This document shows, piece after piece, positions 1-54,321 of a stretch of DNA of 64,000 nt; position 1 is the first letter of the stretch; every line of letters starts with the position of its first letter. The stretch covers positions 5,056 to 69,055 of the forward strand of contig JAAVVG010000026.1 in the NCBI GenBank assembly GCA_012976225.1. Direction: 5' to 3'. The stretch comes from Golubevia sp. BC0850. Lineage: Eukaryota; Basidiomycota; Exobasidiomycetes; Golubeviales; Golubeviaceae. A program made the translations under genes and the position numbers. The notes under the pieces are model-generated. The model saw only the letters and a program-made list of their open reading frames with translations. It made no database searches and was not told where the DNA came from.

Positions 1-347
1 TCCTGCAGTGGGAGTGTGAGTGGGGACAGAGTCTGAGTCACCATGTTGGTTTGCTTGCATTCCATCTCTTTCTCCCTTTCTGCCTCTCTTGTTGTTGCTG
101 CTAGCTGTTCTGTTATCATTAGATGGAGAGGAAGGGAATCTCTTCAATACGGTAAAGGTGAACTCAGGGGAATTAGGGGCAGTTGGGGATGATGATTCGA
201 ATGTTGATTGAGGGAGGATCTATTCTAATTTCGTCTTGTTCTGCCGTTTCGATTCTTCAGTAAACCTCAACAGCATCTACAACCTTTTAATGCTTCAACG
301 TCTCCAACAGCCTTCAAGTCTCAACCTCGAACTCCTTTCAAGTACCC
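1..347. other. Left edge and 5' flank of the first gene
   Basis: I see no supportable gene here. A short open frame at 20-211 begins with a hydrophobic leucine-rich stretch but has no recognisable domain or splice context. The last 100 bases are rich in CT and CAA, which is typical of fungal 5' leaders, and end at the ATG at 348. Confidence 0.4.
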
Positions 348-1335
348 ATGTCAGCTGACGAAAAGGAAACTCAAGATCTAAAGCTATTAGACGATGATGA
401 TCCTTCCATACTCTCTCAACAGATTTTCCAAATTCTCAAAGAGGCAGTGTTATCTAAAGGTGAGCCATCACCTGGAGCTTCAGCAAAGAGGATCGATTCT
501 CTCCTGAAAGCCAACGTCGGGTTAGTAACCGAAGAAGGAGGAGCGATCACCTCGAAAGGCTTCAGCTTTGTAGTAGGCATGATGTTAGTCCAAACAGCTA
601 TCCAACTACCAGCTGAGAAGGACAAACAACACGAGAGGCTGGGAGAAGTAATACTTGCCCTCACTAGAATTCCAGAGAGAATGGATGGGGATCAAATTTT
701 CGCTTGGAGTAAATTACCTTTCATTGAAGGGGAATTTGAGGATCGATGGCATCGTGAGTTCTTATGCAGGTCTCGTGAAATGGAACATAATTCTAATCAT
801 GTCTATAAATGGTCATTCTTGACACCCTCTCCTCACGTCTCCTCTCAAAGAGATTGGACCTGGTGGGGGATCTCGTGAACAAGATTGGAGACGTCTCAAC
901 TCTTTTATGGCCACTCTAGTCGGTCTCAACTCGCAAAGTTCTTCTCCCTCATACCAAGTCCAGAGGTGGATCAGATGGGGGTGGTACCCTTTCAACACGT
1001 CAACCGGAGGTTCCTATCGTCATCGTCACACGCAACAAATATCAGAAAACCCAATCGCTGGCAAACACTACAAAGCCAATCTAGAGATGACTGCTTTATG
1101 GATTGATAAAGCTGGAGAAGAAATCTACAGGCAAAGTAAAGATTCGAAATCTGAGGAGGGAGGTGGACTTCTATGGAGAGAAACCTTGAAAGATGGAGGA
1201 AGGCTGAGTGATAGATGGGAATTTTGGAAGGAAAGGTTGAGAGTTATTGGTGAATTTGAAGGAAGTGATCAAGACATTAAGACACTTATAAAGAAGATGC
1301 AGAGGAAGATGGGAGAGATTGAAAATGAGCTTTAA
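348..1335 (+). CDS. Hypothetical fungal protein, possibly DUF3632-like
   Basis: Two exons (348-753 and 851-1335) are joined by a 97-base GTGAGT...AAAG intron that carries one base of a codon across, giving 296 residues. The first exon has an acidic start and a helical segment around residues 70-110. The second opens with a glycine-rich motif followed by WRRLNSFMATL. A later stretch (ALWIDKAGEEIY) and the charged C-terminus look helical. The 'W..LN.F.A.L' pattern and a later 'WI..AGE' pattern recall the fungal DUF3632 family, but this is from memory and weak. I see no signal peptide or membrane segment. A second short intron inside exon 2 cannot be excluded, because residues 150-200 look less protein-like than the rest. 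The function is unknown. Confidence 0.6.
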
Positions 1336-5100: not shown

Positions 5101-5657
5101 CCTTGCATTTGTAGCTTCAGTGTCTTCAGACCAGCTCACATCAACTAGTCTGACGTGTCCTCTAGCTGTTCCTCCTCCTCTGAGTCTCTCAGATTACTCA
5201 CCGCCAAAGCCTCCAAACTTCTATACCTCTGCTCCCTACAATGCCTCTCCAACTCCTTTGTTAACACTCCATAATGAATGGAATAAGGGAGATGATCACT
5301 GATACCAGCTTTCGATACATCAGTATCCACTTTGACGTCTATCAAAACAGGTTGAGGTTGAAGTCTTTCCCAAGAATCTACTCCTAGTAGCATTCGAACT
5401 TCTAGCTGCGACAGAATGATCGAATCTGGAAGATGAGGAGTTGAGGAGGTCATGTTGAAGGTAGGGTTGAAGGAAGAGAATGATCTAGAGGAGGAAAAAG
5501 AAGTGATAGAAGCAGAAGAAAGTGGAGAAGAAGGATGAGTCCTCCTGCAGAAGAGAGAGAAAGAAGATGAGTTGAAAGCCGAAGGAGTTGAAGATGCCGA
5601 GTATAAACGGAATCGATTTGAAGAATTAAAAAGAAAAGATTTGAAGATTGATATCAT
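2134..5657 (-). CDS. FOL1: Trifunctional folate synthesis protein (DHNA/HPPK/DHPS)
   Basis: The exons are 5657-5202, 4664-3669 and 3582-2134 (966 residues). The protein makes dihydropteroate for folate synthesis. In order it has two dihydroneopterin aldolase domains (about 78-190, split by intron 1, and 233-370), HPPK (about 425-560, with IALGSNLGD and GPRVVDLDLIFYD) and dihydropteroate synthase (from about 620, with IMGIINSTPDSFSDGG and LGPSRKRFLG). The splice joins rebuild conserved strings: SLEALA joins DGIAKVCIF, and FLNGACR joins IATRLEPEE. The first 68 residues contain no Asp or Glu and are rich in Ser, Arg and Phe, like a mitochondrial presequence; yeast Fol1 is mitochondrial. A downstream Met at 5453 would give a form without it. 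A Ser/Pro-rich insert of about 50 residues sits inside the DHPS domain (about 840-895). Intron 1, at 537 bases, is unusually long here. Confidence 0.95.
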
Positions 5658-6277
5658 TCCATATATTCAGAAGATTAAGAAGATGAATCTAGAAGAGCAT
5701 CGTGATTGGTCGAGAGGAGGAAGAAAAAGACATTCCAAGTTCTTTTTCCTGATAAGGTACTTTCTTCAGACCGCAAAGTGGAAACTTTCCGCCTCCGCTA
5801 TTTTGGTTCCATCGATCTGATTCTTTATACAGAACAGTCCAGAACAGCATAACGAGGGACTACTTCTTGGACCTAGAAGAAAGTTGGATCGAGTTGGAAT
5901 TTGGGAGGGCATCACACGGTGAAGAGAAGATGAGAAGGACAGGGCCTTTTAATTGAAATTCAGAACCTAAAAGAATAATGATGGAACAAATTCGGGGGAA
6001 GAGGCTGAGAAGATCCCATGTTAGGGTTTCAAAGCTTCTTTTCTTGATGAGTTCCTAGTTCTTGAGTCTTCACTCTTGAGTATAGCAGCTCTTTTGAACG
6101 CTCGGGTTGATCGAACCCAATTCTTGACGTCACTATCGGATGAAATAAGAGGAGGTCTTGAGAGAGACTTGAAGTGGAAGCTGAGAGTTGAGAAGTTGAA
6201 GAAGACGAAGGGGCGAAGTTGGACCTGAAGTGGGTGTTTCGAAGAAGGGCTGAAGCAGTCATCAGTGTGACGAGAAG
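5658..6277. other. FOL1 upstream region
   Basis: The region lies between the FOL1 start and the end of the F-box-family locus, both on the minus strand. Short open frames at 6021-6293 carry no domain. It presumably holds the FOL1 promoter and the 3' end of the neighbour. Confidence 0.4.
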
Positions 6278-8377: not shown

Positions 8378-11300
8378 CTAGAAGGGTGTAGACTTCTCAT
8401 CCGTAGGAGATACTGGTCTTGAATTGGCATCGGACGGAGAGAGAGCTCTGTTAATGTTCGAAGGAGAGAATGATCGAGTTGAAGCTGCTAGAGCTCTCTC
8501 CTCTGCGATCGATTGACGGCTCATTCTCCTCGCGACAGCTCCCCAGGCACTGGACTCGAAGCTCTCATTGGTAGAAGAAGCTCGTCTAGATCCAGCTTCA
8601 TCAGGGTCTTCATCGTCCACTAGGATCCTGGGCGTAGTTGCAGGAGAAGCGTGAGGAGAGAGTCTGCTCGGAGAAGCCAAGTCTCTTTCGAAGGGGTTAC
8701 GAAGTTCTGCTGGAGGAGTGCTTGAAGCGTCGATGTGGAGGGAGAGATTGGGTCTCCTGGAACGTGAAGTCGGTTGAGTTGGACTAGGGTCGATTTGGAT
8801 CGAAGGTAGAGAGCTATCGGCGAACTGTGGAGTTGAGGCCATGTATCTCTCGTGTCTGTGAGCGAGGAACCTTCTCCTGAGCCATACCATCGACATGACT
8901 CCTTTGACTCGTTCCAAGTTGACCTTGTCCTCCACGATTTCCAGCTGAGCTCTTCTCTCGATAGTCTCTTCCAATTCCAGAGAGACAGCATCATCGATGA
9001 GCTTGTAGTGAGCGAGAAGGAGAAGCATGTCGGTGAACGAGACTCCCTTTCCTTCCTCTTCGAGAAGACGAGCTTCGTGGTAGAGATGATTGAAGCGATC
9101 CTTTCTGCGACGAAGCTCTTCCACGTCCGTCTTGGCGAGGGCGTGTCGAAGCAGTCCAATATCCATTCCGCTGATGATTGGGCCAGATGAGAGAGGAGAC
9201 CTTGGACCGGTAGAAGGAGATATTGGACCTGGAGAAGTGGGTTTGAAGAAATTCCTGGATGTTGGACTCTTGGGTTCTCGGCTTGGAGAATTGGTGCGAA
9301 GGAGTCCTCCTACCCTGCTTGGACTGGAAGGGCTGAGAGGCGGACCTCCTGCAGCGTCTGCTGCCTTGAAAAGGTTCGACACAGAGAGCTCTGTTGGGTA
9401 GATCCGAACCTCCAATACTCCAGTGAGACCACGGAAGAAAGGAACGAGTTTCTCGACCGGAAGGAATCCGGTCCGATGAGTGTCAAACTCAGCCCAGACC
9501 TTCTTGTAGCCTCGAACCTGCTCACGGGAGAGAGAGGGCTTTCCACCGAGATGCATGACATAGGAGAAGTTCTCTACTACGGTACCAGTGAACACTGTGG
9601 GAGAAAAAGAGGGAAACGTTTGAACACGCTTGTCTAAGATCTGACGTAGCTCTCGAAGCTCGACACTCACTGTTCAAGAAGATGTACATCGAGATGACGT
9701 TCCAGCCAATGAAGAGGAAGTAGGCCCAGCCTTTGCTTCCACAATCGGTATCCAGGTAGTTGTCCGAAGGAGTGCAGTCTGGGACAGAGAGAGTATAATC
9801 GTGCATGTACGAATTCCACCCTTCACTGCAAGTGGTAGATCAGAGTCAGTTTGAGTTTCTTCGAGGCTGGAGAATCATCAGTTTCAGCTGCACTTACCCG
9901 GTAGACATCATACTGAGGAAAACAAGAGATCCTATCAACGTCTTGAAGTTCTTGGAGTAAGTCTCGTTGTCTCCCCATTTCGTGAGACCGAAGACTTCGA
10001 CGAGCATGATTCCCCAGACCAAGAACATAGTGAGCCAGAGCAAGAATAGAGATAAGATGGCAGGAAGACTCGCACTGGAAATGAGAGAGAAGATAGGAAA
10101 AGAGGGAGTTGTCAGAAAGTTTCTACTGATTCGGAATCCTTCTCCTCGAGAACTCACATCGCAGTCTTGAAGAGTTGATTCAAAGCATTGTTCTTCTGGA
10201 CTAGCTTGAAAGCCACTCCAGTCAAAAAGATCTTTTGGAATTGAACGTTTGTTTGATTGTCCATGCCCCCTCGGAGAAGAGGAATGGTAGTAGCTAGCAG
10301 TCCAGTGACGACGGCCAGATCGTAGAGGTTCCAGGTATTCTCTCTGAAACTCCTCCAACCAAGACCAGCGAGCCTGACAGCCAGATCGATAGCGTAGATG
10401 ACCGTAAAACATAGATAAACGATGTCTGAAAAAAGGGGGGGAGAGGAGAGAAAAAAAGAGAAAAGGTCAGGTCGTCCTCATCGATCGAACGGAAACCAAA
10501 CTGTTCAGACTGACCTCTGAGCTGATCAACCGAGAAGGGATCGTCGTATTGTTGAGTCATGAGAGTAACGATGTTAAGAATGTAGAGCAAAGTCATACCA
10601 CGAGACCACCAGCCGTGCTTGTGAACAGCACGATCGTAGCACCAAGCTCGAACTCTATCAGCCGGCTTGACCTTTGGTCGCTTGGAAGGTTTCTGTCTTG
10701 CAATAAGGCGCTTGAGATCCAGCCATTGCCTTTGCTCGGTCGTCTGATAGGCAGCACCAGAGAAGGTTTGGAAGTTCTCAATGATGACAGAAACGAAAAG
10801 GGTCAAGACGAAGACGGCTCCGATAAGATTGTAGATCAAGAAGAACAAAGCGTTGACTTGACGATTGTCGGGTTCCAATTGTTGATTACGTCCGGTGATA
10901 CTCATTGCAGCAGTCATGACATCGATCCAGCCTTCCAAAGATACGATCTCGAAAAGAATAAGCAGAGAGCTCTTGAAGTCGTCGAACGAGTAGACCGAAC
11001 CATCGGTTGGATTGGCCCAGACCCTTGGAGCTAGGAAAGCCCATTCTAGAGGCGAAGCAGAGTACTCTCCTTGACATTCGAACTTGTTGGCGATACCGTC
11101 TCCGTCATTGCAAGAGTAGAGGAGACCGGCGAAGAGATTCTGTCCCCAGACGGCGTAGGGAACGATGTAGAGAATTGCGAGGATAGCAGCATCTGCGATT
11201 CTTCCGGCTCCAGCAATGACGACGGCGTGGAAAGTGTTGCGCATGTAGGAGGAGAGATTGATTAGACGCAGCGCACGGAAGGCTTTGAGAGCACGAGTGA

Positions 11301-14300
11301 AGCGACTAACACCCCCAATGACGGCGATCTCGGTTGTGACGTTGATGACCAGAGTTCCCAAGACGAAGAGATCCAAAGCGTTCCAGATGTTGAGAAGGTA
11401 GGCGTTGGGAGTGAAGGCGAATCCGTCAGCGATGACCTTGATGGCCAATTCCGAGATGAAGAAGATGGAAAGAGAGATCTCTGTGACGGAGAACCAAGAG
11501 TCCCTTCGAAGACCGTTCTCTCCATACCACTCTCTACGATAGGCGGGAGTAGCGACACCAGCAATGACGACACTGGCAGCGATAGCTAGGAAGATGGAGA
11601 CCTGGAAGAGGAGATACCTGAGCCTAGAGTAGGGTCTACCAAAGATACGTTCTCCGTAGGAGGGAGGAACGAGACTTTGACAGAACCTTCTCAACCGGCT
11701 ACGATTGTCGAAGATCCAGAGCGTCTTGTCGTAGGAGGGATGCGTGTTGATCAGAATGGCCTGCTGAACTCGAGGATCGTTCTCCACCCTTTGTTGATAG
11801 TTGGCGTCGACCTGAGCTTGAGTGAGTGGCTCCCTGCCTCCGAGTCCTAGATCCGTACGCATTCGATGAAGCTGTCTCTGTCGATGGAAGAGGTGCTCGT
11901 CGAACAGAGTTCCGTTGGCTCCTCGTGATTGCCTAGCGTTTGGACCTAAAGAAGCTTCTCCAGAAAGAGACTGCCTGAATTGTCTTGCTCGTAGAGTGTC
12001 TAGGGGCACCTCTTCTTCAGGGTTATCCAATCTCAAGACTCTCTTAGTAGTATCGAGGAATCTTTGGAACCTAGATGGATTGACGATGTTTTGAAGAGTG
12101 ACGCTCATCCTTCTTCTTCCCTTTTCGTCCACTTTCTCTTGATCTTGAGTAGAGGAAGTAGCAGCTCCAGCCAAGATGGCAGCGTTTCGATCTCTGAGGT
12201 ATCGATAAGGACTCAGTTTGTTCAAAAGTCCGGCTGTGGCTGATTGATCCTTCCCTTCCGCTTTCTTGAGGTACATTTCGATCTGTTGTTGTCGTTTTTG
12301 ACCTTCGGCGACGTTGAAGTTCTCGTTGATGACGGCGATGAACATTTGAAGCAGGATGACTGCGATAGGTGAAGGAGAAGAACGTCGACGTCAGAAAGCG
12401 ACACGAAGGAAATTGAAACCTCAAAAATCCGAAACTCACAATTGGCAAATAAGAACCAACCACAAATGAACATTCCAGCGATGACGGCTTGCTTGAATTG
12501 CTTTTCGTTAGAAAGAGAGGAGTAGAGAACAGTCGTCCAATCTTCTGAAGTAAAGATCTGAAGGTGGGAAGAAAGCAAAAGTGGCCATAGTCAGCGAAAG
12601 TGACTCATTCTGTCTCTCGGACGACGTCCTGAAGAAAAAAGCCAAAGACTCACCTGATACATAGCCAAGTACGAATTGAAGATCTGCTTGAAGTTCATCT
12701 CTACGTGTTCTCCATCATCTTCTTGAGGAATGTCTCCTCTGAAGAGTTGAGCAGCGACCAGGGCTGCAAGACCTACGGTCATGAGCAGAAAGAGAATCAT
12801 ATTGAATAAACCAGACATGGAACCAAAGACTCTAATCAGAAGAACCTCCATTCTAGGAACAGCAGCGATGACTCTGTAGAACCTAGCCAATTGAAAAAAA
12901 GTCATCCAAGGATAGACTGGAGAATTCTTGATTTGAGGAATCTGAGAGATAGAGGTGATGACAGCCAATCCTAGATCGGCAAGGTTTCTTTTGTGAGATA
13001 AGAAGTCTCTCCAATCATTGTCCAAGACGAAAGAGATGAACCTGAACATGATTTCGACGTCGAAGGCGACAGTGAACCAAAGTTCGGTAAGTTCTTGTCG
13101 TCTTTGCATGGCTGTAGTACTGTAAGATGCTTGAGAAGCTTGAACTCCGAGATCGGCAACGATGGCTGCTAGCCAGAAGTACTTGGTGTAACCCCAAATC
13201 CTCTTGTAGACATCGGCGGCACGCTTCCTTCTTCTCATTCCTTTGGTAGTGTCGACCTCAGGTTTGGGAGCAGCTACGACATCGATCCTGGAAAGAGAGA
13301 GGAAGAAAGGAAGGAAGGCGGACAAGAGATGGAAAGAACCAAATCAGCAAGTGTCTCAATCATTTCTCTCTACCGAATCCAACTCACTTCTTGTTGGTAA
13401 AAGCACTCTGCTTAGTCTCTCCAGTAATAACACTGAAAGTATTTGTAATAACAGCAACGAACAAATTAGCCAAGAAGAAATTGAGAAGAATTAATCCAAT
13501 GACGAAATAAAGGCAAGAAGCATAATAATCAGCGTCAATCATATCATACATGGTTTGAGACCAATTATTACTAGAGATGATGATGACGACTTGAAGTAAA
13601 GAAGCGAAAATATCATCGAAACTGAGGACTCCGTTCTCTGGATTCTGTTTACTTTCAACGCAGACTTGACCTGTAGGACAAATATAACCTTTAGGACTAA
13701 GAGATTCAGGTTTCCGATCCGTAGTAAGATGACCTCTGGCTTCATTGGTAGTTGCATTTATGAATCCACCACAGATTTGACTTAAAGTGACGTTGTTTGG
13801 ACCACCGGGCATGAGACCAGGGATAGCACCAGGAGGTAGACCGCTCGATAATTCAGGTACGTCTGAGAAATAGACGCAACTTCTTCTGTAACTCCCTTTG
13901 AAAGATTGTAAACCGATGACAGAGAAGAGTAACATGGCGAAGACTGTGAAGAACAAGACGTTGGCTAAAAGAGGACCTGCTTGCTTTAAACTGTTGAGAA
14001 TCGTAGAGGTGCCACTAGTAGCGGTGAGCAACCTAGAAGCTCTCAAGACCGAAAGAGCTCTGAAGATGTAGATGTGATGATTTGCAGTGTTCTCAGTTCC
14101 GAACATACAGAGTATGAAAGTGATCCAGAATCCAATGACAGCTACTAGATCGATTCGGTTCCAAGAATGTCGAAGGTAGGCGTAATGAGCCGCTTGAGCT
14201 CTTTGAGAGGCGATGGCTTCAACGAAAGGAGTTTTCTGAGCTGCTTTCTGCATGAACTTTGAAGCGTAAGGATCCGAGGCGTGGAGATGAGGAACCGTTC

Positions 14301-16975
14301 CAGTCCGATTCAAAGCATGACCTATTGGAACTGATCCAGTTCTTGAATGGAAAGCTCCTTTGGTTCCAGTGCTGCTCGTCGTTCCTTCCTGGTAGTGAGT
14401 TTGAGTTGAGGCTACAAAAGTAGAAAGTCTATCTGCACTGAAAGTTCTGTTCCTCGTAGGTCTCTCCTGAGCTCCTCCTTGACCGTGGCCGAAACCATTT
14501 CCTTTCTCGGCTTGAGCTGAGGCGTAGCCACTTTGACCTCCATCGGCTTGAATCTTCAGAGGATCAGCCAAACCAGAAGTCTTGTACCTCACAGTTGGCA
14601 TTCGATTGGGAGAGGTTCCTCTGACCCCGAACTCGTGCTCAGCTCTTGGTTTGAGAGCGTTGGAAGCCTTGCTCTTGAGAGAATCTCCGAGGACAGCAAA
14701 GGTGTCTAAAGTGTTGGACTTTGACATTCTTCTTCTAGGATCAAAGTCTTGCAGATCAGCATCGTGTCTGACCACTTTGCTCGAGCCTCCAGAGATTGAG
14801 CGAGCAGTGGAAGTTTGACTGATTCCGAAATTTAGAGTTGGTCGAGCGGGAGCTTCCGAAGGTTCGACTTGGGAGGCTGGATCGTACATCGGAGGAGGAT
14901 TGATAACCAGTCCGGAGACGATGATACGAGCTAGGACTTCGATACTGAGGACAGAAAGAGAAATGAGGCAGAGAAGTTCAGCGAAACGGAATCATCTACC
15001 CCCTTCTTTGTTTGTTTGAGTCGTCTGCCGACACTCACGTAAAGACGACAAAGATTCCTAAAAGAGCGTAGTCCGGCCAGTAATCGAAGTAACCAACTTT
15101 TCGTGGATATTCGAAGACATCTTGAGCAGATTGAATCACCAGAATAACGACATTGGCAACAATCATGATCAAAACCAAAGGTTCAATCCACCAGTAACCC
15201 ATTAATTTAGCCAAAGCTCTTCTAACTTTAGATGTAGGACCAAAGAACCCTAACGATTTCCCTCTCAAAAGTTGATTACTTGGATCCCAATCTTGAACCG
15301 GTTGGGAAGAACTGACAGGTCTAAACCCATCATTGACTTCATCCGAAGAATGAGAAGAATAAGAATCAGAATCGTTCTCATCGGCATCTGGTAATCTGGT
15401 ATGACCGGCTTTATTCCTTAAACCGTTTCCATTCTCATTTCCATCTAAATTGACAACCCTTCTTGAGATTCTCTTGATGGATTTCCCAACTTTGTTGAAA
15501 GAGGATTTGGCCTTTTCCATTCCTTGATCTGTGAAATTGACGTGTTCTGTCCCTTCAACTCCACCTGCACCTGCAGCTAAAGTATAGAAATCAGCGGAAG
15601 ATCTGTGAACCAAACCTCTTTGTCTTCGTCTTTCTTCAGCTGCATCTTCAACATCTACATCTTGAAATGCTAAATTCCTACCAGCTTGATCTAGATTCCT
15701 AGTTCTAAGACCTTCTCCTAGTTCAGGTGGAGAATCAGTCCAACCGACTGGACTATCGGTCCTTTGAATTCCAAAGGCATTCCCATTCCTGAAAAGACCA
15801 GGACCAGGCACAGCAGAACTAGATGAAGAAGTAGTATTAAAAGTATTCTGTCTTGAACCTTCTGCTCTATCTCTATTCGGATAATCAAATCGATCGTACC
15901 CCATTTGAGCTTGATGAGATCTTAGAACTACTCCTTCAGAGCCTGAGTCTGGATCGTTAAGATCTAAAGTAGCCATGGAAGGGTTTTGAAGAGAGTTGAG
16001 ACTCATCCCAGCTGGTCCCATCATTCCCATTGGCATGGAAGGAGAACCATTTGGCGAATCTTCAACTTGAGAAGGTAAACCTCCCATTCCATAAGATTCG
16101 GTATGAGAATGGGAATAAGGATAATCATTGTAATTCCTACTCCTTGCGGTCGGATTTGAAGAACCAGCAGTGGTGGTAGCTGAACCTATCTCTTGGCCAA
16201 TCCCAACTCCAACTCTTCCTCCTCTACTCAGCTCCACCGTCTTCTCTTCCTCATCTGCGTTACTCAATAGAATCCCAGGCATATCTAAACTACCAGTTCC
16301 GAATCTGGAAGGATTGTTTGAGGAATTGAGGTCGATCTCTGAGGAATGAGGTGAAAGGTTTAAAGGACCTCTAATTCTACTTTTACTTCCCAAATCGCCA
16401 GCATTACTTGAAGAAGAAGTAGAAGTTGTATTACTATCATTTAGCCTATGCCTACTTATATTGCCAATCTGATTTGAAGGGAATTGAATAGAAGGAACTG
16501 GACTTGTTGGAGACGGAAGAGTTGGAGTGACAGCTCCAGTGGAACCTGAACCTCCAACTGTTGTTGAGACTCCTAGGTTGAGATCAGGCATATCTACGTT
16601 GCCATAATAATAAGAAGAAATGAAAGGATTTGAACTTGGGGAAGGGAAAGAGGAAGAATTTGAGATTGAGAATCTATTGGGAGAGGAAACGTTGGAAGCG
16701 TTTGAATTGGAATTGGAATGTGAGGCTCGGCTTTCTGAATTTCTATTGAAATTGCTAGTGTTATCATCATGTGGAAATTCATTTCTTGGATCCGTTAAAG
16801 TGGAAGAAGTGGTAGTGGATGTAGAAGTAGAAGTAGAGGTAGGTGCAGCAGTAGATGTAGATGATTGAGCTGCTGCTGATGAAGGTTCTAACAAAGTTGG
16901 TGCTATGATTAAATCTGAATCTTGAGAATCATTACTCCATTCATTTCTATCTCTATTTCTATTAGGTCGGGTCAT
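8378..16975 (-). CDS. CCH1: Voltage-gated calcium channel, Cch1 type
   Basis: Nine exons give 2,635 residues: 16975-15039, 14944-13388, 13287-12654, 12557-12440, 12359-10515, 10425-10158, 10074-9898, 9825-9671 and 9594-8378. It is the pore subunit of the fungal high-affinity plasma-membrane calcium channel, which works with Mid1. Four ion-channel repeats are visible, and every join restores conserved text (FVVFT to IEVLARI; FAN to [15 protein letters not shown]). The pore positions read SNNW, SEDW, LEGW and GEGW, an N-E-E-E filter. The first ~590 residues are Ser/Asn/Thr-rich and disordered. An insertion of about 240 residues, basic and Ser-rich, separates S2 from S3 in repeat I. The C-terminal cytoplasmic tail starts with a region like the EF-hand-adjacent part of calcium channels and ends Ser/Pro-rich. 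The identity is secure; exact N-terminal start is not proven. Confidence 0.95.
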
Positions 16976-36720: not shown

Positions 36721-38758
36721 ATGGCAACGGCTTTCATTGGACTTTCAGTTCAAATCTTACTGACTTCAGGACAAGAAGTAAGAGGAACCATCTCTCAAGT
36801 TGATCCCAACAATGGGAATCTCTCACTATCCTACAATGGAACTCTTTTCAATCTCAACAGAAACCAGATAAGTGATCTTCAGTTGATCCAGCAGCCTCAA
36901 TCACAGCAGCCTCAACCTCAGCCTCATCAGCATCAGCACCATCAAGTCTCCCAGCAATCCTCTCAACCTGCTATCTCCTCTTCAGGTTCCTCTTCTCATC
37001 CACATCAAGCCTATAATCAAACACCTGCAGATCCAGCGATTCTGTCTCTCAGTACAAGTTCCAATCCACAGTCCAGGTACAACTCTCCTCAACCTCACTC
37101 CAATCATTTGGCTTCTGTTCCAACTCCCAATTTCCCTCAATCTCAATCCCAATCATCGAATAAAACAAACTTAGCTTCTTCTTCTGCTCCTCTATCGTCT
37201 TCTTTACCTCAACCGAGTAGCAACTCCAAGAGCCATTCAAATGCCAATCAGTCTTCGAATGGGAAGAGAGCCACTAATAAGAAGGTAGCGGAAGAAAAAG
37301 AGAGGACTTTGAAGAACAAGAAGAGCGGAACCAAACATAATGGAAATCAAAATGGGAATCAGAGTCAGAGGACTGAGGGTCAATCGAAGGGCAAGTCAAA
37401 AGCTAACAAGAACGTTAATTCTGAAGCGAACTACTCCAATGGCACTCATCAGGAATCTAGAAAGCAGGTTTATGGGAATGGGTTCGATGAAGACTTTGAT
37501 TTCGATGCAGGATTGAAGACTTTCGACAAGAAGAAGGTTTGGGATGAAATTAGAGTGCGTATAACGACAAGGCTTTCGGAGTCTCACTCAAGTGTTCTGG
37601 TGGTTTGGGAATCTACGGTTTGGGAATCTACGTTTTGATCTTTCTGGGTATTTCAGGATGTTCCTACAAACTGAGGTCGCATACATTGACGTTTCGGCCA
37701 CTCGAGAAGGATTACAGAATTTTACTTTCCTTTCCCCAAATTTGTTTCTCGTCTCTTACTGACTGATCTGATCTCCTCCTGCTATCTATTCCATCGATCT
37801 CGTCATCTTTTTTCATCAGTCTGCCGATCAATCAGATAGGTCAGAGCTTCTAGTATCACACAATCGCATCAATCAACTATCTTCAAACGACGACGACCAT
37901 TATCGCCACCACTCTTCCTCTTCTTCTAGACAATTAACCAAAGATGGTCGAAATGGACAAACTAAATTGGCACCTAATGAGAACGTTTTAAGTCCTGAGA
38001 TCGAAGGAGAAGATAAAGACTTTGGAATTAGTTCAAACTCGAAGGATCTGGAATCTTTCACTTTATTCAATGGAGGGAAGCAAAGAAAGCTAGAAGAAAC
38101 CGAGGAAGAGGAAGAAGAAGATGAAGAATTTCTAGAAGCTTTAAGTTCTCCATCTCCAGCTGCTGCTTTGAGTTCTTCAATGAGGAAAAGTGGTTCGAAT
38201 TCAAAGACTCAAGGTAATTTACTTTTCAAGGGACCTTCAAATAAGGTTTCATCTATTCTGTCAAGCTCCAATCTCGAATCAAAGTTCAACCCCAATCAAT
38301 TCAATCCTGATGGCCTTATCTCTTCTATAGAACTCGGCGACTCAACCTCAACCAAAGCTCTTCAGACTGAAATCCTACAACTCAAAGAGAAGTTAGCACT
38401 CTTCGAATCTTTATCTTCTTACTCTCTAAATCTTAATGAAAGTCTCAAATCATCAAATTCAGAACCTGGATCTAAGACTTATGATTGTTTATTGAAAGAG
38501 AAGAATCCTCAAAAGGAGGAGATTGAATTTAGATTCGGATTGGCTTGTAGTTTTAATGAAGAGGATCTTGAAAGTGGAAGTAGAATCGGATTGAACAAGA
38601 TTCGGTACTTACCCCCTTCAAGTGTCTCTGAGCGAGTGGGAAAAGAGGGGATGGAGATCTTATCAAAGTTACCAACGCATTATGGAAAGGAAATTGGATT
38701 GAGACCTGAGAATGCTGCGGTGTTCGTCAAGAGGTTGAGAGACGCCTTACAAGCTTGA
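36721..38758 (+). CDS. Edc3-like LSm/FDF protein with C-terminal Csm1/Pcs1-like domain
   Basis: Two exons (36721-37554 and 37820-38758) give 590 residues. Residues 1-60 look like the divergent LSm domain of Edc3 (FIGLSVQILLTSGQEVRGTI). A Gln/Pro/His/Ser-rich linker follows. The FDF motif (EDFDFDAGLKTFDKKKVWDE) sits at about 257-277. The intron lies right after it, and exon 2 continues with ERLVAHN-like SELLVSHN and the Edc3-type ENVL near 330. Edc3 normally then has a YjeF_N domain; none is visible. Instead come an acidic run, a coiled coil (LQTEILQLKEKLALFE) and a C-terminal block (TYDC...IEFRF...RYLPP...EILSKLPTHY...FVKRLRDAL) resembling Csm1/Pcs1. A second gene starting at the in-frame Met 399 (38180) is the main alternative. 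The GTGCGT donor is uncommon but gives the conserved join. Confidence 0.75.
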
Positions 38759-39333: not shown

Positions 39334-42300
39334 ATGTCAGCTCAAGCCAAACTGTTAGTCCTTTGTCCTCTACTCCACTCCACTCCATCCAACCTTGCCA
39401 GCTACTGATTACTCTCTCCCTCTCTACTTGTTTTTGCACACTTTCAGATCTCTAAGACCTCCACCTCACGTAAACTTCATTCAAGGTTATCCAGGAATCG
39501 CTCCCTCTGATTCTCCATCCTCTCTTCGAGCTAGACCTGCTGCTCATATCGCTGGGACAGTAGAAGTCAGGCTTGGAACCAAAGGTCTCAAGGCTAGTTG
39601 GCTTAGGATAGAATTGAGAAAACTGGAGTCCATCAATGGAGAGAATTGGGGAGAACTTATAGGAAGAGGTCCTATAGATGTTTGGAATGCCACAGGAAGC
39701 TCAAAAGCAGTTAACAGTGGGAAGGAGTTACAGAAGAAACATTCTATTTACAAGGGGAAGGACGATGAAGATGAAGATGGATGGGAGACTCTGCAGACTG
39801 TGAGTAGCTCTGTAGCCTGAGGAAAGGCGGAGAGGGAGAAGGGCAGGTCAAGATAAGAAACTGCGAGGGCTGAAAGAGAACAGCTCAATAGCATTTGATT
39901 GTTCCATTCCAATCATCTTTTTCAAAGTTCATTCATGCGTTAAATGAAACTCTATTCAGACAATGTCTGAAATTGACTATCTGACCTTTGCTCTCCTCTC
40001 CCTACACGGACGCTCTCCTACCAGGCCGACTTCCCTTTCCACATTTCGATTCCTGAAGGACTCCCTCCGACAGCAAGAATCGATAAGCAATCAAGCATCT
40101 CATACGAAATCGTCACAAGTCTTTGCGTCTTAGCAAAGAAGGGCCTCTTAAGGAAAGAATCAACTCAATCTATCATTCAAAGCACTCATCCAATCGCTCT
40201 AGAAAAACACGAACTTCACTCAACTTGGCCAATCTATCACATTCCGGAAGAACACACCTCAATGTCTGAAGATGTCTCTGCTAAAGTCTTTCGATCTCAG
40301 ACTTGTTATTCTCCTGGAGACAACGTTTCTATTCGAGTCGTCATTCTATCTGCAAGAGTTTCACCTGTCAAGTTGAAAGCTGTTAGCTTTTCCATTCGAG
40401 AAACTATTACCTACAAAGGGACTTCAAATCCAGTGGGGAAGAGAATGTCTAGTATAGTTGCTAGTTCAAACTCTGAGAAGGAAAAGGCAGCTTCTCAAAA
40501 AACGGAAACTATCGCTCAGAAATCAAAGAGTGTCGGAAAGAAGATGTACAAAGGAGACAATCAGATGTTGGATCTTTCGGTTCAGATACCGAAGACTCAT
40601 ACTTTGATGACTATCAGAACTGCAAAGCATATCGAGGTCAATTACACGTGAGTGTGGAGAGAATGCCAAACGAGCTCGATGTTCCCACGCTGATCTCTTT
40701 CCATTCACACCACCCTCCTTTTCAACAGTCTGCGAGTGCATGTCGATCTCGCTAAGAATCCAATCATCATCGATCATCTCCCAGTCACGATCTGCAACTT
40801 CAGTACTGCCGCTTCGCAGGATCTCGTAGCCAGAATTGGATACGTCCCAGGACTTTCGGATACAGAAACTGAAGCGCCTCGACCGCGACCAACGCAATCA
40901 ATGAGAGCTGAATCTGAAGATGCTGATCCTCGAAGGAGGATGTCTGTCAGAAGGAGTCAGAGCTACGCTGGGTCCGCAGCTGGAACGAACTTTTCAGACG
41001 TTCGAATCGCTTCTGGACCCTCCACTCCAGTGGGACGAGCACATGGCATGGACAGCCAGTATCCCTTCGCGCCTGGTTCTGGATCGAACAGTCCTCGAAA
41101 CAGCAGCCCTCGAAGACCACCTCAGAGAAATGACACAGTCTACACTACCGCCAGCAGCAACACCACCATTTCAGGTCCTGGAATGGCTGGGAGAGGAGCT
41201 ACCGGTGCCGGTGGAGGGAACTCAGGTCAATTCTTCTCTTGGGGTCAATATGGAGCTGCTCAGCCTTACTCTTCGGAACCAGAGTATCAGCCGCCGCCTG
41301 TCAGATCTGCCTTCGCTGGTCCTGCTAGCATCTACAATGGAAAAGATGGAACAGGTCTCTCCAGTCTCTCTCGGGAGGAAAATCGAGCTTTGGCTCATCA
41401 CAGTGCTAGACCTCAAAGTCTGGCGATGCTGGGAGGATACGATCCGATGACTGGAAGTGGTTATTCAGACAACAGGACCACTTCTTTCCAACCAGGTCAA
41501 ATCGTGGGAGCTTCCCCTTCGAGACCTGCTAACTTTGGAACGATTCAGGAAGGAATTCAAGGATTCAACCCTATTTCAGGTCAAATCGGTGGTCCTCAAT
41601 TCAGGGAGAGGACCTACTCTACTCCATCTAGCCAACACTCAGCTCCAAGGCCTTCTTCCTCCCCCAACTTCCTCGCTGCCAACTCTCTTTCTCCTAACTT
41701 CGATCCTTCTCAGCTCAACAATTCTACCACAAGTCTCAATTCACCTTCAACCCCCAATTCGACCAACCTCTCAACGACACCTACAACTCCTACCGCCCCT
41801 CTTGGAAGTGCTGCTGCAGCGGAGGCTGAGAAGATGCGGCTGTACGAAAGAGCACGACAGCAAGCAGAGAGGAATCAACGTCGAGCCGATGAGAAGAGAG
41901 CCAAAGCAGCTGGTGGAACTCTTACTGGAACTCTTTCAAGCGTCAGATCCGTCTCTAGTCCCGCTGAAGAAACTGGCGCGGCTCGAACTCCTACTCTCTC
42001 TTCGACTATTTCGTCTCATGAGAATGCTGAAGCCGAAAAGACGAGGCTCTACGAACGAGCTCGGAAACAAGCTGAAAAGTATCAGGCTGGTTACAAGCAA
42101 GGAGCGAGCTTCCCCAGCGACGAGGCGGAGCCACCTTCGTCCTCAGGTAGAGTCTCCGAGGGCTACTCGGATCCTAACTCAGAAGAACCTAGACCTCCCT
42201 TCGACAAGAGATCCAGTGCCAATTTCTGGATGACGGGAAATTCAAACAGTCAGAATCAGAGCGCAAGTGCAGCTACTTCGACCAGCTCTTCAATCGCTCC

Positions 42301-47204: not shown

Positions 47205-50200
47205 TTATTTCCAAGCTGGTCTTGATGGGGTTGAATTGGGATTGAAAGATGACGAAGTTGGTGTGAAGGTAGAGGATGATAGTCTTGGTCGTTGAATGAC
47301 GAGAGGGTGCCTGGCAGAGGGAGAAAGAAGAAGAGAAAAAGTCAGATGGAATCGGATAACACGAAGTTTGATTGCATCGGAACGACCAAAGAATTGAGTA
47401 GTCGATACTCACATCTGATCTTGGCTTGCCTCTGCGATTAGAGATGACCGAGGAGTCGAGGCCAGTAGACGATGAGGACTTGGATCGAAGGAAGAGCTGG
47501 CTCTCCTCTTGGAAGTCGCGTAGCCCTCGCTCTTTCTACCAAGAGAAGGGGTGGGAGAAGATGTTCGAGGGAAAGAAGGAGAAGAGCTGTCGTTGACACG
47601 AAGGTACCCGTTTGCAGGAGTTCCATTCCCGTCTCCATTTGCAAACTTGTCTGGAGTGAAAGGCATGGAAGGAATGGGAGGTCTTAAATGAGGATTCTTG
47701 CGGAAATTGACCGAAGAAGCTGGACTGTTGGGAGTGGACTCGACTCTCCTTCTTCGATAAGGGGTGCCAGTCTCGTTTCCATCGACCGGTCTCAAGATGG
47801 AGTGCGAGGCTTTGGTGTCTTCAGGAGAGCGGCTTAATCTATTGTTGTCCTCCGACAGACTTTGAGCACTGATCCATTTCTCTGCGGCATTAGCCGCTGC
47901 AAGAGCTTGAGGAGAGGACCCAGTCGCTTGTATTGTTGCAGCGTAGTTCCGATACAGGAACTCTTTCATTTCCATCCAGCCACCTCCAGTTCTGACCAGA
48001 CCTGTGAAAGAGAAGGATTGAGGGCAACGAGAGGGTCAGTGAGGCAATTCACCTCGCTGCAGAGTGATACAAAAGATACTCACAGCTTCGACGCATGATA
48101 CGACAGAAGACCTTACGAGGCTCTCGATCGCTCCTACCAATCCAGTAGAAGCCAGTCTCATTTTTGAAACCATCATCGGATCGAGAAGGGAGTCCTTGAG
48201 CTGGCGTGACTTGAGAAGCATGCTTGACGTCAATTGCGACAGGCAAATTGTTCACAATTCTTCCAACCGCGACGTCCAGTGCACTCTTTTTGTTGACTGG
48301 ATATTTAGGCCGAGATATGGTAGCGGAAGCCCTGCGAGACGATCCAGAGAAAGCTCTCGTACTGGAAGAAGGAGTTCGCATTGGCAAACGACTTGAGGGG
48401 GTTCTGATCTGGCTGGTCTGCGTTCTTGGAGTGCTTAAAGTTGGAGTCGCATGACCAGGAAGAGATGCCTTCTTTCGCTTGGAAGTCGGAGTCGGAAGTC
48501 TCGAGGTCATTGAGAATCCATTGGAAGGTGCGCGTCGAGGAGGAAGCATGGCGGAAGCTGACCTCTGGGACACGCGAGATCCAACTGGGGTGATTAGACT
48601 TTGAGTTCTTGACCGTGGAAGAGGAGTCATAGGGTGTTCGACAGCACGATCCAAAGCCGACGTCGATCTCTGGCTCTTTGCATCTTCCTGCTCGTAGGGA
48701 GTTTGACGTCCATCGATCGATTCCGAGACTGAAGTGCTGGAGGAAATTGTCGAGCCGGCGTCGTCGAAATCCTCTTCTGCCTCTTCACTTGCTTGACGCT
48801 GAGGAGCTCCAGGGTTGAGAAGCTTGTCGAGCTCCTCTGTCATGTCCTTCAACGACTCATCGAGTGTCTCGACCTTCGCCCTCACTCTCACGTCCCCGGA
48901 GACTGGCATCGCAGCCGTTCTGGCGTCCTCGATGATCGTGCCGAGCTCGGCGAGCTCAGCCTTGAGGGAAGACCGAACAAATTCCGTGAGCACTACAGGC
49001 CTCAGAGAAGAGCTGCGCATGGAGTTCCGGGAGGAGACTCTATCTCTGGGCGATGGAGCCCGTTGGGATGGATCCGATCCCGAGGCTGAGAGAAATGAAG
49101 AATTGAAGGGTAGAGGCGAGCTTCTGGAAGCGGGCGAAAGACCAGATGCTTCATCATAAGATTCGACAAATCTGGAGATGCCGTCATTACCAAGAGCAGC
49201 CATGGTGTTGAAGGCTGCCAGCAAACCATATCGTCTGACCTTTGGACCACGAGCTTTGAAATTCTCAGCCAATCTCTTGCCGTCGGGTTGAGGCAGCTCA
49301 ATCCCGTCTTGATTCAGTAAGGCTTGGCACTTTGAGCTAAAGACGGTCCAATCCTTCTGAACGACCGCGGCGCTAGAAGCGTTAGGAAGGTCGAGGAATT
49401 GACGCTGCTGATCTCTTCCGTCTTCGACAGTCTGGCGTTCCACTTCGTCGTTGCTGACATCGGCGATGAGCTTGCTTATTAGGATGCGAAGAGAGGTTGC
49501 TGAGGTCGATGCTGTAATCGATGGAATCGAAGAGCTTGCCGGGATTGAAGGACCGGGACCGAAAACGTCTGAATCCTGAGATTTGCGAGAGGCTGAAGAC
49601 TTTTGGAGATTGTTGACAGATGGCGAGGAAGTGATGTCAACCTGAGAGGTAAATCGCTTGCTAGAGGCGCTTAGAGGGAAGAGAGTGACTGCTCCAGTTC
49701 TCTTCAGGTCGACGCTCAAATTGAAGGATTCGTCTCCATCTGCCGTTTCGGTAAGATTTTGAGATTTTGATTTTGATTTCGTGACTTGTGGCTTCTTCTC
49801 TATCTCCAGCTTCTTCATTTCTCTTGCGACTCTTGCTGTCTCCTGATCTTTCGCTTCTTGAGCGAACCTAGCTGCTTCTCGGTCCTTCTCTTCTTGAAGG
49901 TGCCTCGCTGACTCTTTCTCTTCTTCGTCCTTAGCCGTTCGAGCCTTCTCCCTCTCCGACTCGGCCCTTTCGAGGCGCTCCTTCTCCTCCCGCGCCTCTT
50001 TCTCCTTGGCCAAGCGATCTGTCTCGTCGCTCTGCTCCTTCGCCCTTCGTCTTCTCTCCTCTTCTGCTCGACGGTTCTGGTTCATCTGCAGAAGATCGTC
50101 GCCCAGTTCCAGCAGCGCGCTCCTCCATTCTTTGACGTCCAACTTGACTTTCTCATCGACAGAGGATACTCGAGAGGATTCGGGAGCAGCTCCAGTGAAA

Positions 50201-53200
50201 GAGCAGTTGGCCGCTTCGCTCGAGAAGACTTGAATGGAAGCTTTAAGCTCGTCGATTTCCCCGTTGTAACTCGAGGACTGTGACGAACTTGGACTCTGAG
50301 AGCCGTTGGAGACGGTTGCCAAAATCTTGTTTTTCAAAAGCTCTCCTTGAGTTGAAATTTGCTGGAATTTGAATTCTAACGAGTCGACCTCTGCTCTCTG
50401 CTGATCGAATCTAGAATACCAGGCTACCAGCGCTTCTGCGGCTTCAAAACCTCGTCTGGTTTGAGCGTTTTGAGAGTCCAAATGCTTTGAGACAGATCCT
50501 AACTTCAGAGGGTCTACTGAGAGACGTGCCCAAGCCGATTCGTGTTGGACCATTCGAGACGACAAGTCCATCAATCGAACCGTGGCTTCGGAGGGAATAG
50601 GAGTCTCGCTCGGTACCTTCGATGCTTCAGACTGACAGCCGGCTTCTACTTCCAAGGAAAGCTGGGTAATCTGAGCTCTGGTCTCAGCTAGATTGGTGGC
50701 GTACCTCTTGAACTGATTCCTTGATTCCATTTCCTGATTCGCCACAGAGGTCGAGCTTTCCAGAGTTTCCAACATTGACGAGAGAGAGCTACACCACTGA
50801 TCGACTTGAGATTGAACAGTCGCATCGGCTGATGAAGGGCGGGGAGAACTGGAAGAGATGGAGCTGGGAGAGGGTCCCGTTGTTGAAAGAGAGCTCTGAG
50901 CATCCTTCGTAAACGCTTCGACCAGCTCAGCGAAGTCGGCTTGGCGAGTCGTAACTCCAAGAAGGGGTTGCGACTCCTCTGATGAAGTAGGTCTACTTGT
51001 TTCGACTTTGGACAGAAGCTCTTCTTCTGCTTCTTGAATTGCCTTGATCCTGGCGTCCTGGAGGTCTTGACTCAGCTTCTCTCCTTGCTTAACGACTTCC
51101 TGATACTTGATCTGGAAGAAACGAGTCATTTCTGACTGTCTTTCGACGTCAGCTTGCCATTTGATGAGAGCCTCTAGGTCCGAAACTTCTTGTTGAGCTA
51201 GATCCTTTTCCTTTGCAAGGTGCTGCTTGATGGGATCCGACTCCAAAGAGAGACCTAAAGCTGGCGAAAGATTCTCGATGTCGGTGCTGCAGACGTGCAG
51301 CCGACTGGAGATGGTTTTGAGTCGTTCCTCAGCGTCGATGGAAGAGAGAGAAGGGGTCTCGGAAGATTGCGACGCAGCCTTGCTTGTTTCGCAGGCTTTC
51401 ACTACCTCCCGAACTAGCTGCTTGTTGTCTGTCCTGACTTTGGCTAGGTCCTCGGCGAACTTCTTCGCTTTCCTCCTTCGCTGGCCCTCCACTTCATCTC
51501 CTTTCATAAGTCTTTCGATCTCTTCCTTCAAAGAAGAGAGAGCCGCGCACCACTGATTTCCATTGGTTCTAAGTTCGTCATCTGATGAGATCAACGCTGA
51601 GTGAGAATCAAGAGGTGGAGGGCCAGTGAAGACCATCCTGGAAGTTTCTTCGAGGAATTCTTCGACTTGGGATTCAAAGCTTGATTGATCTTTTTGAAGT
51701 TGAGGAGGTAGCTGTCCTAGGTTAGAAGGAGAAGTAGAGGTAGAGACCTCGACGATTGCTTTGAGAGAATCTTGATCGGAAGTTGCTTTGCCTTGATGTA
51801 GATTGGAGACTAGCTTCTCGCCGATATCCTTCAGTTGAAGATAGTTTTGCCTTAGCAGTTGACCTTTCTCAGCTTGTTCGTGAAGAGCTCTATACCAGCA
51901 TAAAAGCTTCTCCGACCTCTTGAGCTGATCCTCGAGACCTGCTTGTTGATTCTTGAGATGCTGCCTTAGAGGGAGAGCTTGAGCCAAAGCTTCTTCCACT
52001 TGTCTATTCTTCCTTGTTTCCATTTCAGCTTTTTGAGAGATCGATTGGGCTAGATGTCGTGAAAGCCGACCGAGCTGTTCCTTGACTTCATTGGGTGAAA
52101 GAGACGGCTTCGAATCAGAGCCTGAGATTGACGTAGAAGTGTTGAATCTTTGAGCATTGCAAGCCTCTTCGATCGAGGTTACCAGTAGTTGAGCTTGATC
52201 TTGCATGCTGCGATTTTGCTTGTCGATCTTCCTGCATTCCATCAAGATTACTCGTGCTGCGTTTCCTGAAGAAGTAGCTGTCTCTGCTTTCTTCATGGCT
52301 TCAGTGTACTCCGAAGCTGAGTGCTCAGCTGAACTACGGAAAGTAGGCTCCACCATTCCGAATTTAACGCACGAGAGAATAGAAATTGAAAGCTGCTGAA
52401 GTTGAGGTTGGGTTTCTGAAGCAAGTTTGGAAAGTTGCTGTTGAAGTGCTGGAATGTTTGAAAGATACCTGAGATGTGAGCTGTCTCCGAGTGATCCCAA
52501 AGAGCTTAGAGCAGGCCTAGATCCATCTTGAGTCGATGATTTACTAGGATCATCCAGGCGCCAAAGCTGTTCTGCTTTGACTCCATCTTCCACTTGACTC
52601 CCCCACCCTTTCTCTGAAAGTAAAGAAGCCGACTGACAGGCTTCTTTGGCCTTTTCTAGGTTCGACTGCAAAGCTATGACCTTCTCGAAAGCTTCCAAGC
52701 CTTTGCTGTACGTTCCAACTGCGATAGCCGCTTTCCGAGTTCTCTTCGCAGCGGAGGCTAGTTGCTCGAGGAGGGAAGATCGAGCAGTCGAGTTGTGGAC
52801 GTCTTGGTCTTCCCATTCCGAATGAGTTGGATCAGGAATAATGTTTTGCGGAGCAAATCGAAGAGCGTCTAGACTTGCTGGGCTCATAGCGAGCTCTCTC
52901 CCCCTCTGACCAGCTAGATTCTCTAATCGATCAACCAGAGCTTGGGTTCTGAGGTTGAAAGAGTCTAATTCCGTCCGAGTCGGCCGCTGAGTCTTGACCT
53001 TCTCTACTTCAGCAGCTAATCTCTTTGCATCGGAATGTAAAGTTCTGCAGAATTGATAGACTCCATCGGCTTGTTTCCATTGATGAGTTAAACCTTGAAT
53101 AAATCTGGACTTAGAGTTCATCGAGATGATTCTGTCTTCCATTTTGTCTTGCTCGTCTAACAGTTCGTCTGGAACCTTTCCCAAACTCATGACCTCATCT

Positions 53201-54321
53201 AGCTTCTCTGCTGCAGGTCTGGTAAAACTGAGGTCTAAATCTGTGATTCTTGCCATCAATCTTGAGGCCTCCAATTCTACCTTGTCTACCAGCATGAGCC
53301 TTGAAGTGGCAGATGGGGCTGACTTTGCTTGAGGATTGGGGGAAGAAGTGTCGGTTGAAGATGTTGAAGGCAGAGGAGAGGAGGGGGCTTGATTTGGAGA
53401 GGAAGGAGGGAGGTCCAAGAAAGATCTGGCTGGGGAAAGCGAGCTTGAGTCCGATTCCTGATCTGAATGAAGTCCTCTTGAATAGACAGAGACGCTCCAT
53501 CTTGCTCTCCGACTGACGAAGTTCTCTATAGCTGAGACTAGAGAGTGGTATTCTTTCCACCAGGCTATCCGCTTTGAACCCCAATCTTTTTCCGATGCTG
53601 CTAACTTCAAGCTTGCATCTCTTGTCCCTAGGAGGTGAAGAAGCTTGTCCAAAGCATTAAGAGTATCCAGAGTGAGCTCTATTAGATCAGTGTCATGAGC
53701 TGACATGTGCCCTTTAGAGGTTGCTGAGGAAGGGAGGTGAGGAGCAAGTTAATCTCCAGTCCTTCCTCATATTGCTTTCTATGCCCGGTTCAGCTTCGTT
53801 GCCAGACCTGATGACTCACCAATGCAGACCTTCCTTAGCCTATTCATGTCCTCCCCTCGGAACTCTTCCGTTTCCAGAGCAATGCCATCTCTCTCCTCCT
53901 GCCACTCCTCAAGTAGTTCTCTCGCCCCTCTCAGTTCTACCTCCAGCCGATCCAAGCTATCTTGCTTGTCTTCTAAAGTAGCAAAATCTCGGAAAGGCTC
54001 GATCTTGGGTCTTGATTCCAGCAGCTACAGAGTGAGAGGGACAAGGAGAGAGGCGATGAATGGGTGAAGCTGGTGAGAGGAAGAGTGATTCATTAGTGCC
54101 ACTCACTTTCGTCTGTTGTTCGATCAGGGCCTACGGTGGAAGATAGAAAGCCAGAAAGACGAAGGGATGTTAGTGATGAACATTATGGAGAGTGTTGATC
54201 TTGGCTATCCTTCTTTACTTACCTTCCTCTGAATGAACTTTCTGAACTCAATGACATCATTCGAACTCAGAGCTACCTGATCCGAATCTTGGCTCTTGGA
54301 TTCGACTGTCTGAGTCTCCAT
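47205..54321 (-). CDS. Giant GAR (Gas2-related) domain cytoskeletal protein
   Basis: Six exons (54321-54223, 54130-54107, 54024-53820, 53723-48084, 48001-47413 and 47310-47205) give 2,220 residues from the first safe ATG. GAR domains bind microtubules. Here the domain lies near 1910-2002 (KSALDVAVGRIVNNLPVAID, FYWIGRSDREPRKVFCR, then GGGWMEMKEFL across the intron). Most of the rest is helical and spectrin-like, with three internal repeats of about 230-255 residues. A ~95-residue run of alternating Glu and Arg/Lys (about 1320-1416) looks like a single charged helix. The C-terminal tail is Ser/Pro-rich, as is the region before GAR. The first exons were found because 53723 joins in frame to a preceding coiled-coil exon. 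The frame stays open above 54321, and the true start may lie further up. A cortical or microtubule scaffold is inferred. Confidence 0.87.
50060..51920 (-). repeat. Three internal spectrin-like repeats in the GAR protein
   Basis: Units start near 51910, 51170 and 50430 (minus strand). Each begins with a Trp-containing helix (LLCWYRALHEQA; LIKWQADVERQS; LVAWYSRFDQQR), then a Q/G-rich turn (DIGEKL; KQGEKL; TQGELL), then a signature F....(T)GP/A (EEFLEETSRMVFTGPPP; EAFTKDAQSSLSTTGPSP; QVFSSEAANCSFTGAAP) and an NQWCAALSSL-like helix. Identity is low, so the duplications are old. Confidence 0.8.

What the first reader, a model, noticed from the sequence alone, without database searches (positions are those of the whole stretch)
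36721..38758. Edc3-like protein whose YjeF_N domain is replaced by a Csm1/Pcs1-like domain
Seen: an LSm-like start, an FDF motif and an Edc3-type ENVL, then, in one open frame, an acidic run, a coiled coil and a C-terminal block with the spacing of Csm1/Pcs1 (YDC, FRF, YLPP, LSKLPTHY, FVKRLRDAL). Known: Edc3 is an LSm-FDF-YjeF_N decapping enhancer of P-bodies, and Csm1/Pcs1 is a kinetochore/rDNA clamp (monopolin). Inferred: a gene fusion that would link an RNA-decay scaffold to a chromosome-segregation adaptor, or two genes whose boundary I missed. I know of no description of such a fusion.
Basis: partly seen in the sequence, partly recalled or inferred. Interest (0 to 1): 0.78.

Follow-up and report, generated by a model that had tools for sequence, protein, structure and literature searches.

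The report
Decapping scaffold fused to kinetochore-like domain
In an unnamed fungus, a gene for an mRNA-decapping scaffold (Edc3) appears to lack its usual C-terminal domain and to carry instead a domain that looks, with moderate confidence, like the head of the chromosome-segregation protein Csm1; that would be an unusual domain swap, but no second genome was at hand to confirm it.

Summary
The observation mostly holds, but it is not one open frame. Two exons (36721-37554, 37820-38758) flank a 265-nt phase-0 intron and would encode 590 residues: LSm, low-complexity linker, Edc3-type FDF motif, ENVL, acidic run, short coil, C-terminal domain. Exon 1 matches fission-yeast Edc3 (E 4.8e-5). Exon 2 has coding signal in one frame for 120 codons before its first in-frame ATG, which argues against a hidden gene boundary. 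No YjeF_N domain was found in the pieces scanned, and there is little room for one at the locus.

The Csm1 label is plausible, not proven. Direct Pfam, PDB-sequence and Foldseek searches do not name Csm1. But the Pfam Csm1 model gains about 4-6 bits when the domain is appended to yeast Csm1, unlike 25 controls, and a single-sequence AlphaFold model (pLDDT 63) has a coil-four strands-helices order, as recalled for Csm1.

Best reading: an Edc3 whose YjeF_N dimerisation module is replaced by a Csm1-like coiled-coil head, keeping a dimeric decapping scaffold. Whether it also serves kinetochores, and whether the species has another Edc3 or Csm1, could not be tested: no genome is held, and the few searches possible (prokaryote and viral collections) found no relative.

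The parts
36721..37554 (+). Exon 1 (278 codons): LSm-like domain, low-complexity S/Q/N linker, FDF motif
   Evidence: ORF from ATG; phmmer to S. pombe Edc3 4a53_A E 4.8e-5; coding signal
36721..36894 (+). LSm-like domain, residues 1-58
   Evidence: alignment to 4a53_A residues 9-64, 12.7 bits, i-Evalue 1.2; Pfam LSM E 0.19 and SM-ATX E 0.073, both below cut-off
37264..37323 (+). Basic stretch, residues 182-201; could be a nuclear-localisation signal (by eye, not tested)
   Evidence: position
37483..37554 (+). Edc3-type FDF motif (FDF...FDKKKVWDEI), residues 255-278; expected Dhh1/DDX6 site
   Evidence: Pfam FDF 31.2 bits on the joined protein; alignment to 4a53_A and weak hit to 2wax_B, human Edc3 FDF peptide
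37555..37819 (+). Inferred intron, 265 nt, phase 0, GTGCGT...TTTTTTCATCAG
   Evidence: splice-site list; loss of coding signal
37820..38758 (+). Exon 2 (312 codons and stop)
   Evidence: open frame 37772-38755; coding signal in this frame
37847..37990 (+). LLVSHNR ... NENVL stretch, Edc3-like (motif recalled), residues 288-335
   Evidence: positions; Pfam FDF match ends before ENVL, and its gain over exon 1 alone is not specific: 1 of 5 shuffles scores higher
38093..38128 (+). Acidic run, residues 370-381
38351..38416 (+). Short predicted coiled-coil helix, residues 456-477
   Evidence: AlphaFold helix at model residues 2-21; position
38417..38755 (+). Csm1-like globular domain, residues 478-590
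   Evidence: predicted four strands then helices, pLDDT 63 for the 137-residue construct; Pfam PF12539 chimera test

Best explanation
One gene in a fungus encodes an Edc3-type decapping scaffold whose C-terminal YjeF_N dimerisation domain has been replaced by a Csm1-like coiled coil plus globular head. Shown: two exons, coding in the stated frames; Edc3-type N-terminus; no YjeF_N found at the locus; C-terminal domain with weak Csm1 profile signal. Inferred: the LSm domain binds leucine-rich motifs in Dcp2 or its partners, the FDF motif binds the helicase Dhh1, and the Csm1-like head makes the protein a dimer, so that it still cross-links decapping complexes into P-body-like networks. The head may also offer Csm1's peptide-binding cavity; the residue aligned with yeast L161 and fission-yeast I241 is an isoleucine (I570).
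For: Edc3 match of exon 1 and Pfam FDF above cut-off on the joined protein. Coding signal continuous through exon 2 in one frame, 0.126 bits per codon over 37820-38179 where no in-frame ATG exists, and none in the intron. Donor GTGCGT and a T-rich acceptor, both phase 0. YjeF_N absent from both exons, from 40 other ORFs of the window and from 10 ORFs in and next to the locus (one of these, 39359-39817, was also). PF12539 chimera: yeast Csm1 head alone 78.8 bits, plus this domain 82.8, plus its first half 83.0; 25 controls 76.6-77.8. Predicted order coil, four strands, helices. Two-member Csm1 profile: 3 of 2000 shuffles and 0 of 2000 block shuffles reach the score (one member is recalled). Mechanism: Edc3 dimers with two LSm domains cross-link Dcp2, and Pdc1's coiled coil could be replaced by a GST dimer in vitro (PMC4320757, passages); YjeF_N was required for Edc3 dimerisation (PMC4059234, passages).
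Against: No direct Csm1 hit: Pfam at E up to 10, PDB sequences, BLASTP, Smith-Waterman to yeast Csm1 reached by 38% of shuffles (2085 of 5000). In Foldseek no Csm1 entry is among the 50 rows listed of 681 and 687 matches, and the best rows are other folds. In a tandem-copy Pfam scan Csm1 is not among 20, 7 or 18 families. The second half of the domain adds nothing over base in the chimera test, 77.7 bits. The rise of the FDF score across the splice site is not specific: 35.0 bits for the real join, 38.5 for 1 of 5 shuffles. No relatives, no transcript data, no reads.
Confidence: 0.6

Rival explanations
1. A real single gene, Edc3-like at the N-terminus, whose C-terminal domain is an RWD-like or other small alpha/beta domain not descended from Csm1. 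It would still be an Edc3 with YjeF_N replaced.
For: No direct search names Csm1. The Foldseek rows include inner-kinetochore chains (8ow1_O, 6qld_O; that chain O is an RWD subunit is recalled) at low probability, 0.11 and 0.15-0.16.
Against: PF12539 gain seen for this domain and for none of 25 controls; two-member profile test.
Confidence: 0.2
2. Two genes: an LSm-FDF gene that ends soon after 37554, and a separate Csm1-like gene, for instance from the ATG at 38180 (192 codons, close to the 190 residues of yeast Csm1).
For: The ATG at 38180 opens a 192-aa ORF; unspliced exon 1 runs to a stop at 37638; the intron is pyrimidine-rich and could hold a promoter (by eye).
Against: 37820-38179 codes in the same frame as the C-terminal block at 0.126 bits per codon, with no in-frame ATG upstream of 38180, and carries the ENVL stretch; the context of ATG 38180 is weak by eye (T at -3).
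Confidence: 0.12
3. A misassembly or a deletion private to this isolate has joined an Edc3 gene and a Csm1 gene in frame.
For: No reads, no second assembly and no whole genome could be consulted.
Against: An in-frame, stop-free join with coding signal on both sides would happen about one time in three by luck (arithmetic), so this is weak evidence only; no break of coding signal is seen inside exon 2.
Confidence: 0.08

Closest known systems
Edc3 (enhancer of mRNA decapping 3; LSm-FDF-YjeF_N)
   Same: LSm-like start, Edc3-type FDF with FDK motif; match to S. pombe Edc3 4a53_A
   Different: no YjeF_N domain found; a Csm1-like coil and head in its place
Csm1/Pcs1 (monopolin, PF12539 and PF18504)
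   Same: coil followed by a domain with four strands and C-terminal helices; PF12539 chimera gain; isoleucine at the position of yeast L161 in an alignment that is not significant by itself
   Different: no direct Pfam hit; much shorter coil than yeast Csm1, and no Csm1_N hit; attached to a decapping scaffold; V-shaped Lrs4 complex not testable
Scd6/Lsm14 (LSm-FDF-RGG; family recalled)
   Same: LSm followed by an FDF motif
   Different: FDF here is of the Edc3 kind (FDF...FDKKxVxxEI aligned to S. pombe Edc3); no Pfam LSM14-type hit was listed

Membership tests
Edc3 | N-terminal LSm domain | tested here: inconclusive
   aligned to the LSm of S. pombe Edc3, i-Evalue 1.2; supported by order with FDF on one chain, E 4.8e-5 overall; Pfam LSM below cut-off
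Edc3 | FDF motif | tested here: met
   Pfam FDF 31.2 bits, cut-off 26.1; exon 1 alone 21.0
Edc3 | C-terminal YjeF_N domain | tested here: not met
   absent from both exons at E up to 10 and from 10 ORFs in and next to the locus; hence 'Edc3-like', not filed as a standard Edc3
Edc3 | dimerisation and binding of Dcp2 and Dhh1 | not testable with these tools
   needs protein work
Csm1/Pcs1 | Pfam Csm1 domain PF12539 | tested here: inconclusive
   no direct hit at E up to 10; gain of 4.0 bits over base and 5.0-6.2 over controls in chimera
Csm1/Pcs1 | N-terminal coiled coil (PF18504 in yeast) | tested here: inconclusive
   only a helix of about 20 residues predicted; no PF18504 hit
Csm1/Pcs1 | Csm1 fold in structure comparison | tested here: inconclusive
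   topology fits by eye, but no Csm1 among the 50 rows listed of 687 Foldseek matches; model confidence low
Csm1/Pcs1 | kinetochore or rDNA localisation and Lrs4/Dsn1 binding | not testable with these tools
   needs experiments

The most novel reading that the evidence does not exclude
The fusion is the only Edc3 and the only Csm1 of this fungus: one polypeptide is both the P-body scaffold and the kinetochore/rDNA clamp, either switching between cytoplasm and nucleus or made as a long decapping form and a short Csm1-only form from the internal ATG at 38180.
Probability: 0.2. Interest if true: 0.8.

Novelty: new variant of a known kind. Interest (0 to 1): 0.5.

Why it matters
YjeF_N gives Edc3 its dimer and a nucleotide-binding pocket. 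A natural Edc3 that uses another dimeriser would be a ready test of whether dimerisation alone is what P-body assembly needs from the C-terminus. If the head is truly Csm1 and there is no other copy, mRNA decay and chromosome segregation would be physically linked in one protein, for which the paper searches made here gave no precedent: of the 20 papers listed of 22 one names both Edc3 and Csm1, in unrelated gene lists, and the one paper with Edc3 and monopolin names them apart.

Tried and rejected
Own-genome search for another Edc3, YjeF_N or Csm1: no genome is held for this window. Relatives: viral contigs with the C-terminal domain, with yeast Csm1 and with the neighbouring Spt16 piece gave none; genome contigs with exon 2 gave none. 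These collections hold viruses and prokaryotes, so the absence says little.

FDF score across the splice site as proof of the join: rejected after its control. Real join 35.0 bits, exon-1 tail alone 25.2, acceptor 37847 29.5, read-through 28.5, five shuffles 30.5, 25.1, 34.4, 27.3, 38.5.

Direct alignment with yeast Csm1: not significant. Tandem copies of the domain to get past the Pfam filters: Csm1 not listed, and shuffled tandems also gave spurious families. Foldseek with two single-sequence models: no informative match. Rfam and tRNA scans of the window: nothing.

Passages only were seen of PMC4059234, PMC4320757, PMC12595034, PMC3944740 and PMC2688081; of PMC6823300 passages and section 31. 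PMC2547010 is not held.

Full report
Gene structure. The ATG at 36721 opens a frame that stops at 37638; the C-terminal frame is open from 37772 to 38755 in a different phase. Exon 1 ends at 37554 before GTGCGT, and the frame resumes after CTTTTTTCATCAG at 37820; both are phase 0. Of the 6 acceptors listed from 37772 onwards, two, 37820 and 37847, keep the exon 2 frame, and 37820 has the pyrimidine tract. The 265-nt intron is long beside the 72- and 89-nt gaps between ORF pieces of neighbouring genes, but 187- and 296-nt gaps also occur (these are gaps between ORFs, not measured introns). The product would be 590 residues.

Is it one gene? A codon-usage score trained on 18 stretches of other window genes (6141 codons; three stretches are long ORFs without a Pfam hit) gives 0.087 bits per codon for exon 1, 0.126 for 37820-38179 and 0.052 for 38180-38755; training windows average 0.122 (SD 0.077), off-frame windows -0.333 (SD 0.132). 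The intron is negative in all three forward frames. There is no in-frame ATG from 37772 to 38180, so exon 2 needs an upstream exon, and exon 1 is the nearest coding stretch with a fitting donor. I first took the rise of the Pfam FDF score from 21.0 to 31.2 bits on joining as further proof; the control took that away, because 1 of 5 shuffles of the exon 2 start scores higher than the real one.

N-terminus. Exon 1 matches S. pombe Edc3 4a53_A with E 4.8e-5, LSm and FDF in order; the human Edc3 FDF peptide 2wax_B also appears, E 3.8. The FDF...FDKKKVWDEI form is that of Edc3 in the 4a53_A alignment; that Scd6/Lsm14 has another form, and that LVSHNR...ENVL belongs to fungal Edc3, is recalled.

YjeF_N. 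Pfam finds none in the two exons at E up to 10, none at E up to 0.01 in 40 other ORFs of the window (the window has 150 stop-to-stop ORFs of 90 aa or more), and none at E up to 10 in 10 ORFs in and around the locus (one of them was already). The upstream BCS1-like ORF ends at 36292. The next ATG that I take, by eye, for the arrestin-like gene is at 39334, leaving 575 bases. Whether the genome holds another Edc3 or a separate YjeF_N could not be asked.

C-terminal domain. Direct searches fail: Pfam at E up to 10 for three cuts of the domain, PDB sequences, BLASTP and Smith-Waterman against yeast Csm1. To get a weak second domain past HMMER's filters I appended 116 residues (475-590) to the yeast head. 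Yeast head alone: 78.8; with the window domain: 82.8; with its first half: 83.0; with its second half: 77.7. Controls: 6 shuffles 76.7-77.8 and a reversed copy 77.2 (one of 7 shuffles made was left out by slip), 8 block shuffles 76.6-77.0, 10 unrelated protein pieces of the same window 76.6-76.9. So the gain was seen in no control, 0 of 25; it is small, it was tested for one family only, and the domain is not listed as a stretch of its own. A two-member profile of yeast Csm1 and a recalled ascomycete Pcs1-like sequence (115.2 bits on PF12539) gives 6.3 bits, reached by 3 of 2000 shuffles and 0 of 2000 block shuffles, here through the second half of the domain; the recalled member may be biased. 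The recalled sequence aligns with the window domain better than 44 of 5000 shuffles allow at gap cost 11, and 1 of 5000 at gap cost 8 (block shuffles 42 and 8 of 5000), whereas yeast Csm1 alone does not (2085 and 2916 of 5000). A tandem-copy scan did not list Csm1.

Structure. AlphaFold without an alignment gave pLDDT 52.6 for 192 residues and 63.0, pTM 0.48, for 137 residues: helix 2-21, strands 25-32, 43-53, 60-71, 82-89, helices 100-107, 111-117, 121-136. That order fits Csm1 and RWD domains as I recall them. Foldseek had no match at E 0.001 or better; among the 50 rows listed of 681 and of 687 matches there is no Csm1, and the best rows are NTF2-like and VirB8-like folds.

Mechanism. In S. 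pombe, Edc3 is a dimer whose two LSm domains bind leucine-rich motifs of Dcp2, giving a network that phase-separates; Pdc1, whose coiled coil oligomerises it, still worked when a GST dimer replaced that coil (PMC4320757, passages). YjeF_N was required for dimerisation and RNA binding of Edc3 (PMC4059234, passages). Csm1 is a homodimer with a hydrophobic cavity; S. pombe I241, the equivalent of yeast L161, is needed for binding Dsn1/Mis13 (PMC6823300, passages), and Csm1 is thought to go back to the last eukaryotic common ancestor (section 31). A Csm1-like head is therefore a plausible substitute dimeriser, and the window protein has I570 at the aligned place, though that alignment is not significant. 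That the head still binds kinetochore partners is open.

Verdict. Gene fusion in sequence: likely. YjeF_N missing: likely at this locus. Csm1 origin of the head: more likely than not. Dual function: speculation. The fungus is unnamed; that it is a basidiomycete is only my impression.

Noticed in passing
37565-37759: An open frame of 65 codons inside the inferred intron, with an ATG near 37659; low coding score and no Pfam hit.
   Followed up: partly
2137-5666 (-): Folate-synthesis gene pieces: two FolB matches, HPPK and pterin-binding enzyme in order, as in a fused folate-synthesis protein.
   Followed up: no
48052-53748 (-): A 1899-codon open frame without any Pfam hit, followed at 47412-48035 by a weak GAS2 match, E 0.0053, below cut-off.
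   Followed up: no
10297-14991 (-): Three adjacent ORFs with ion-transport domains, probably one large voltage-gated channel gene.
   Followed up: no
291-1332 (+): Two ORF pieces that together match DUF3632, a family of unknown function.
   Followed up: no
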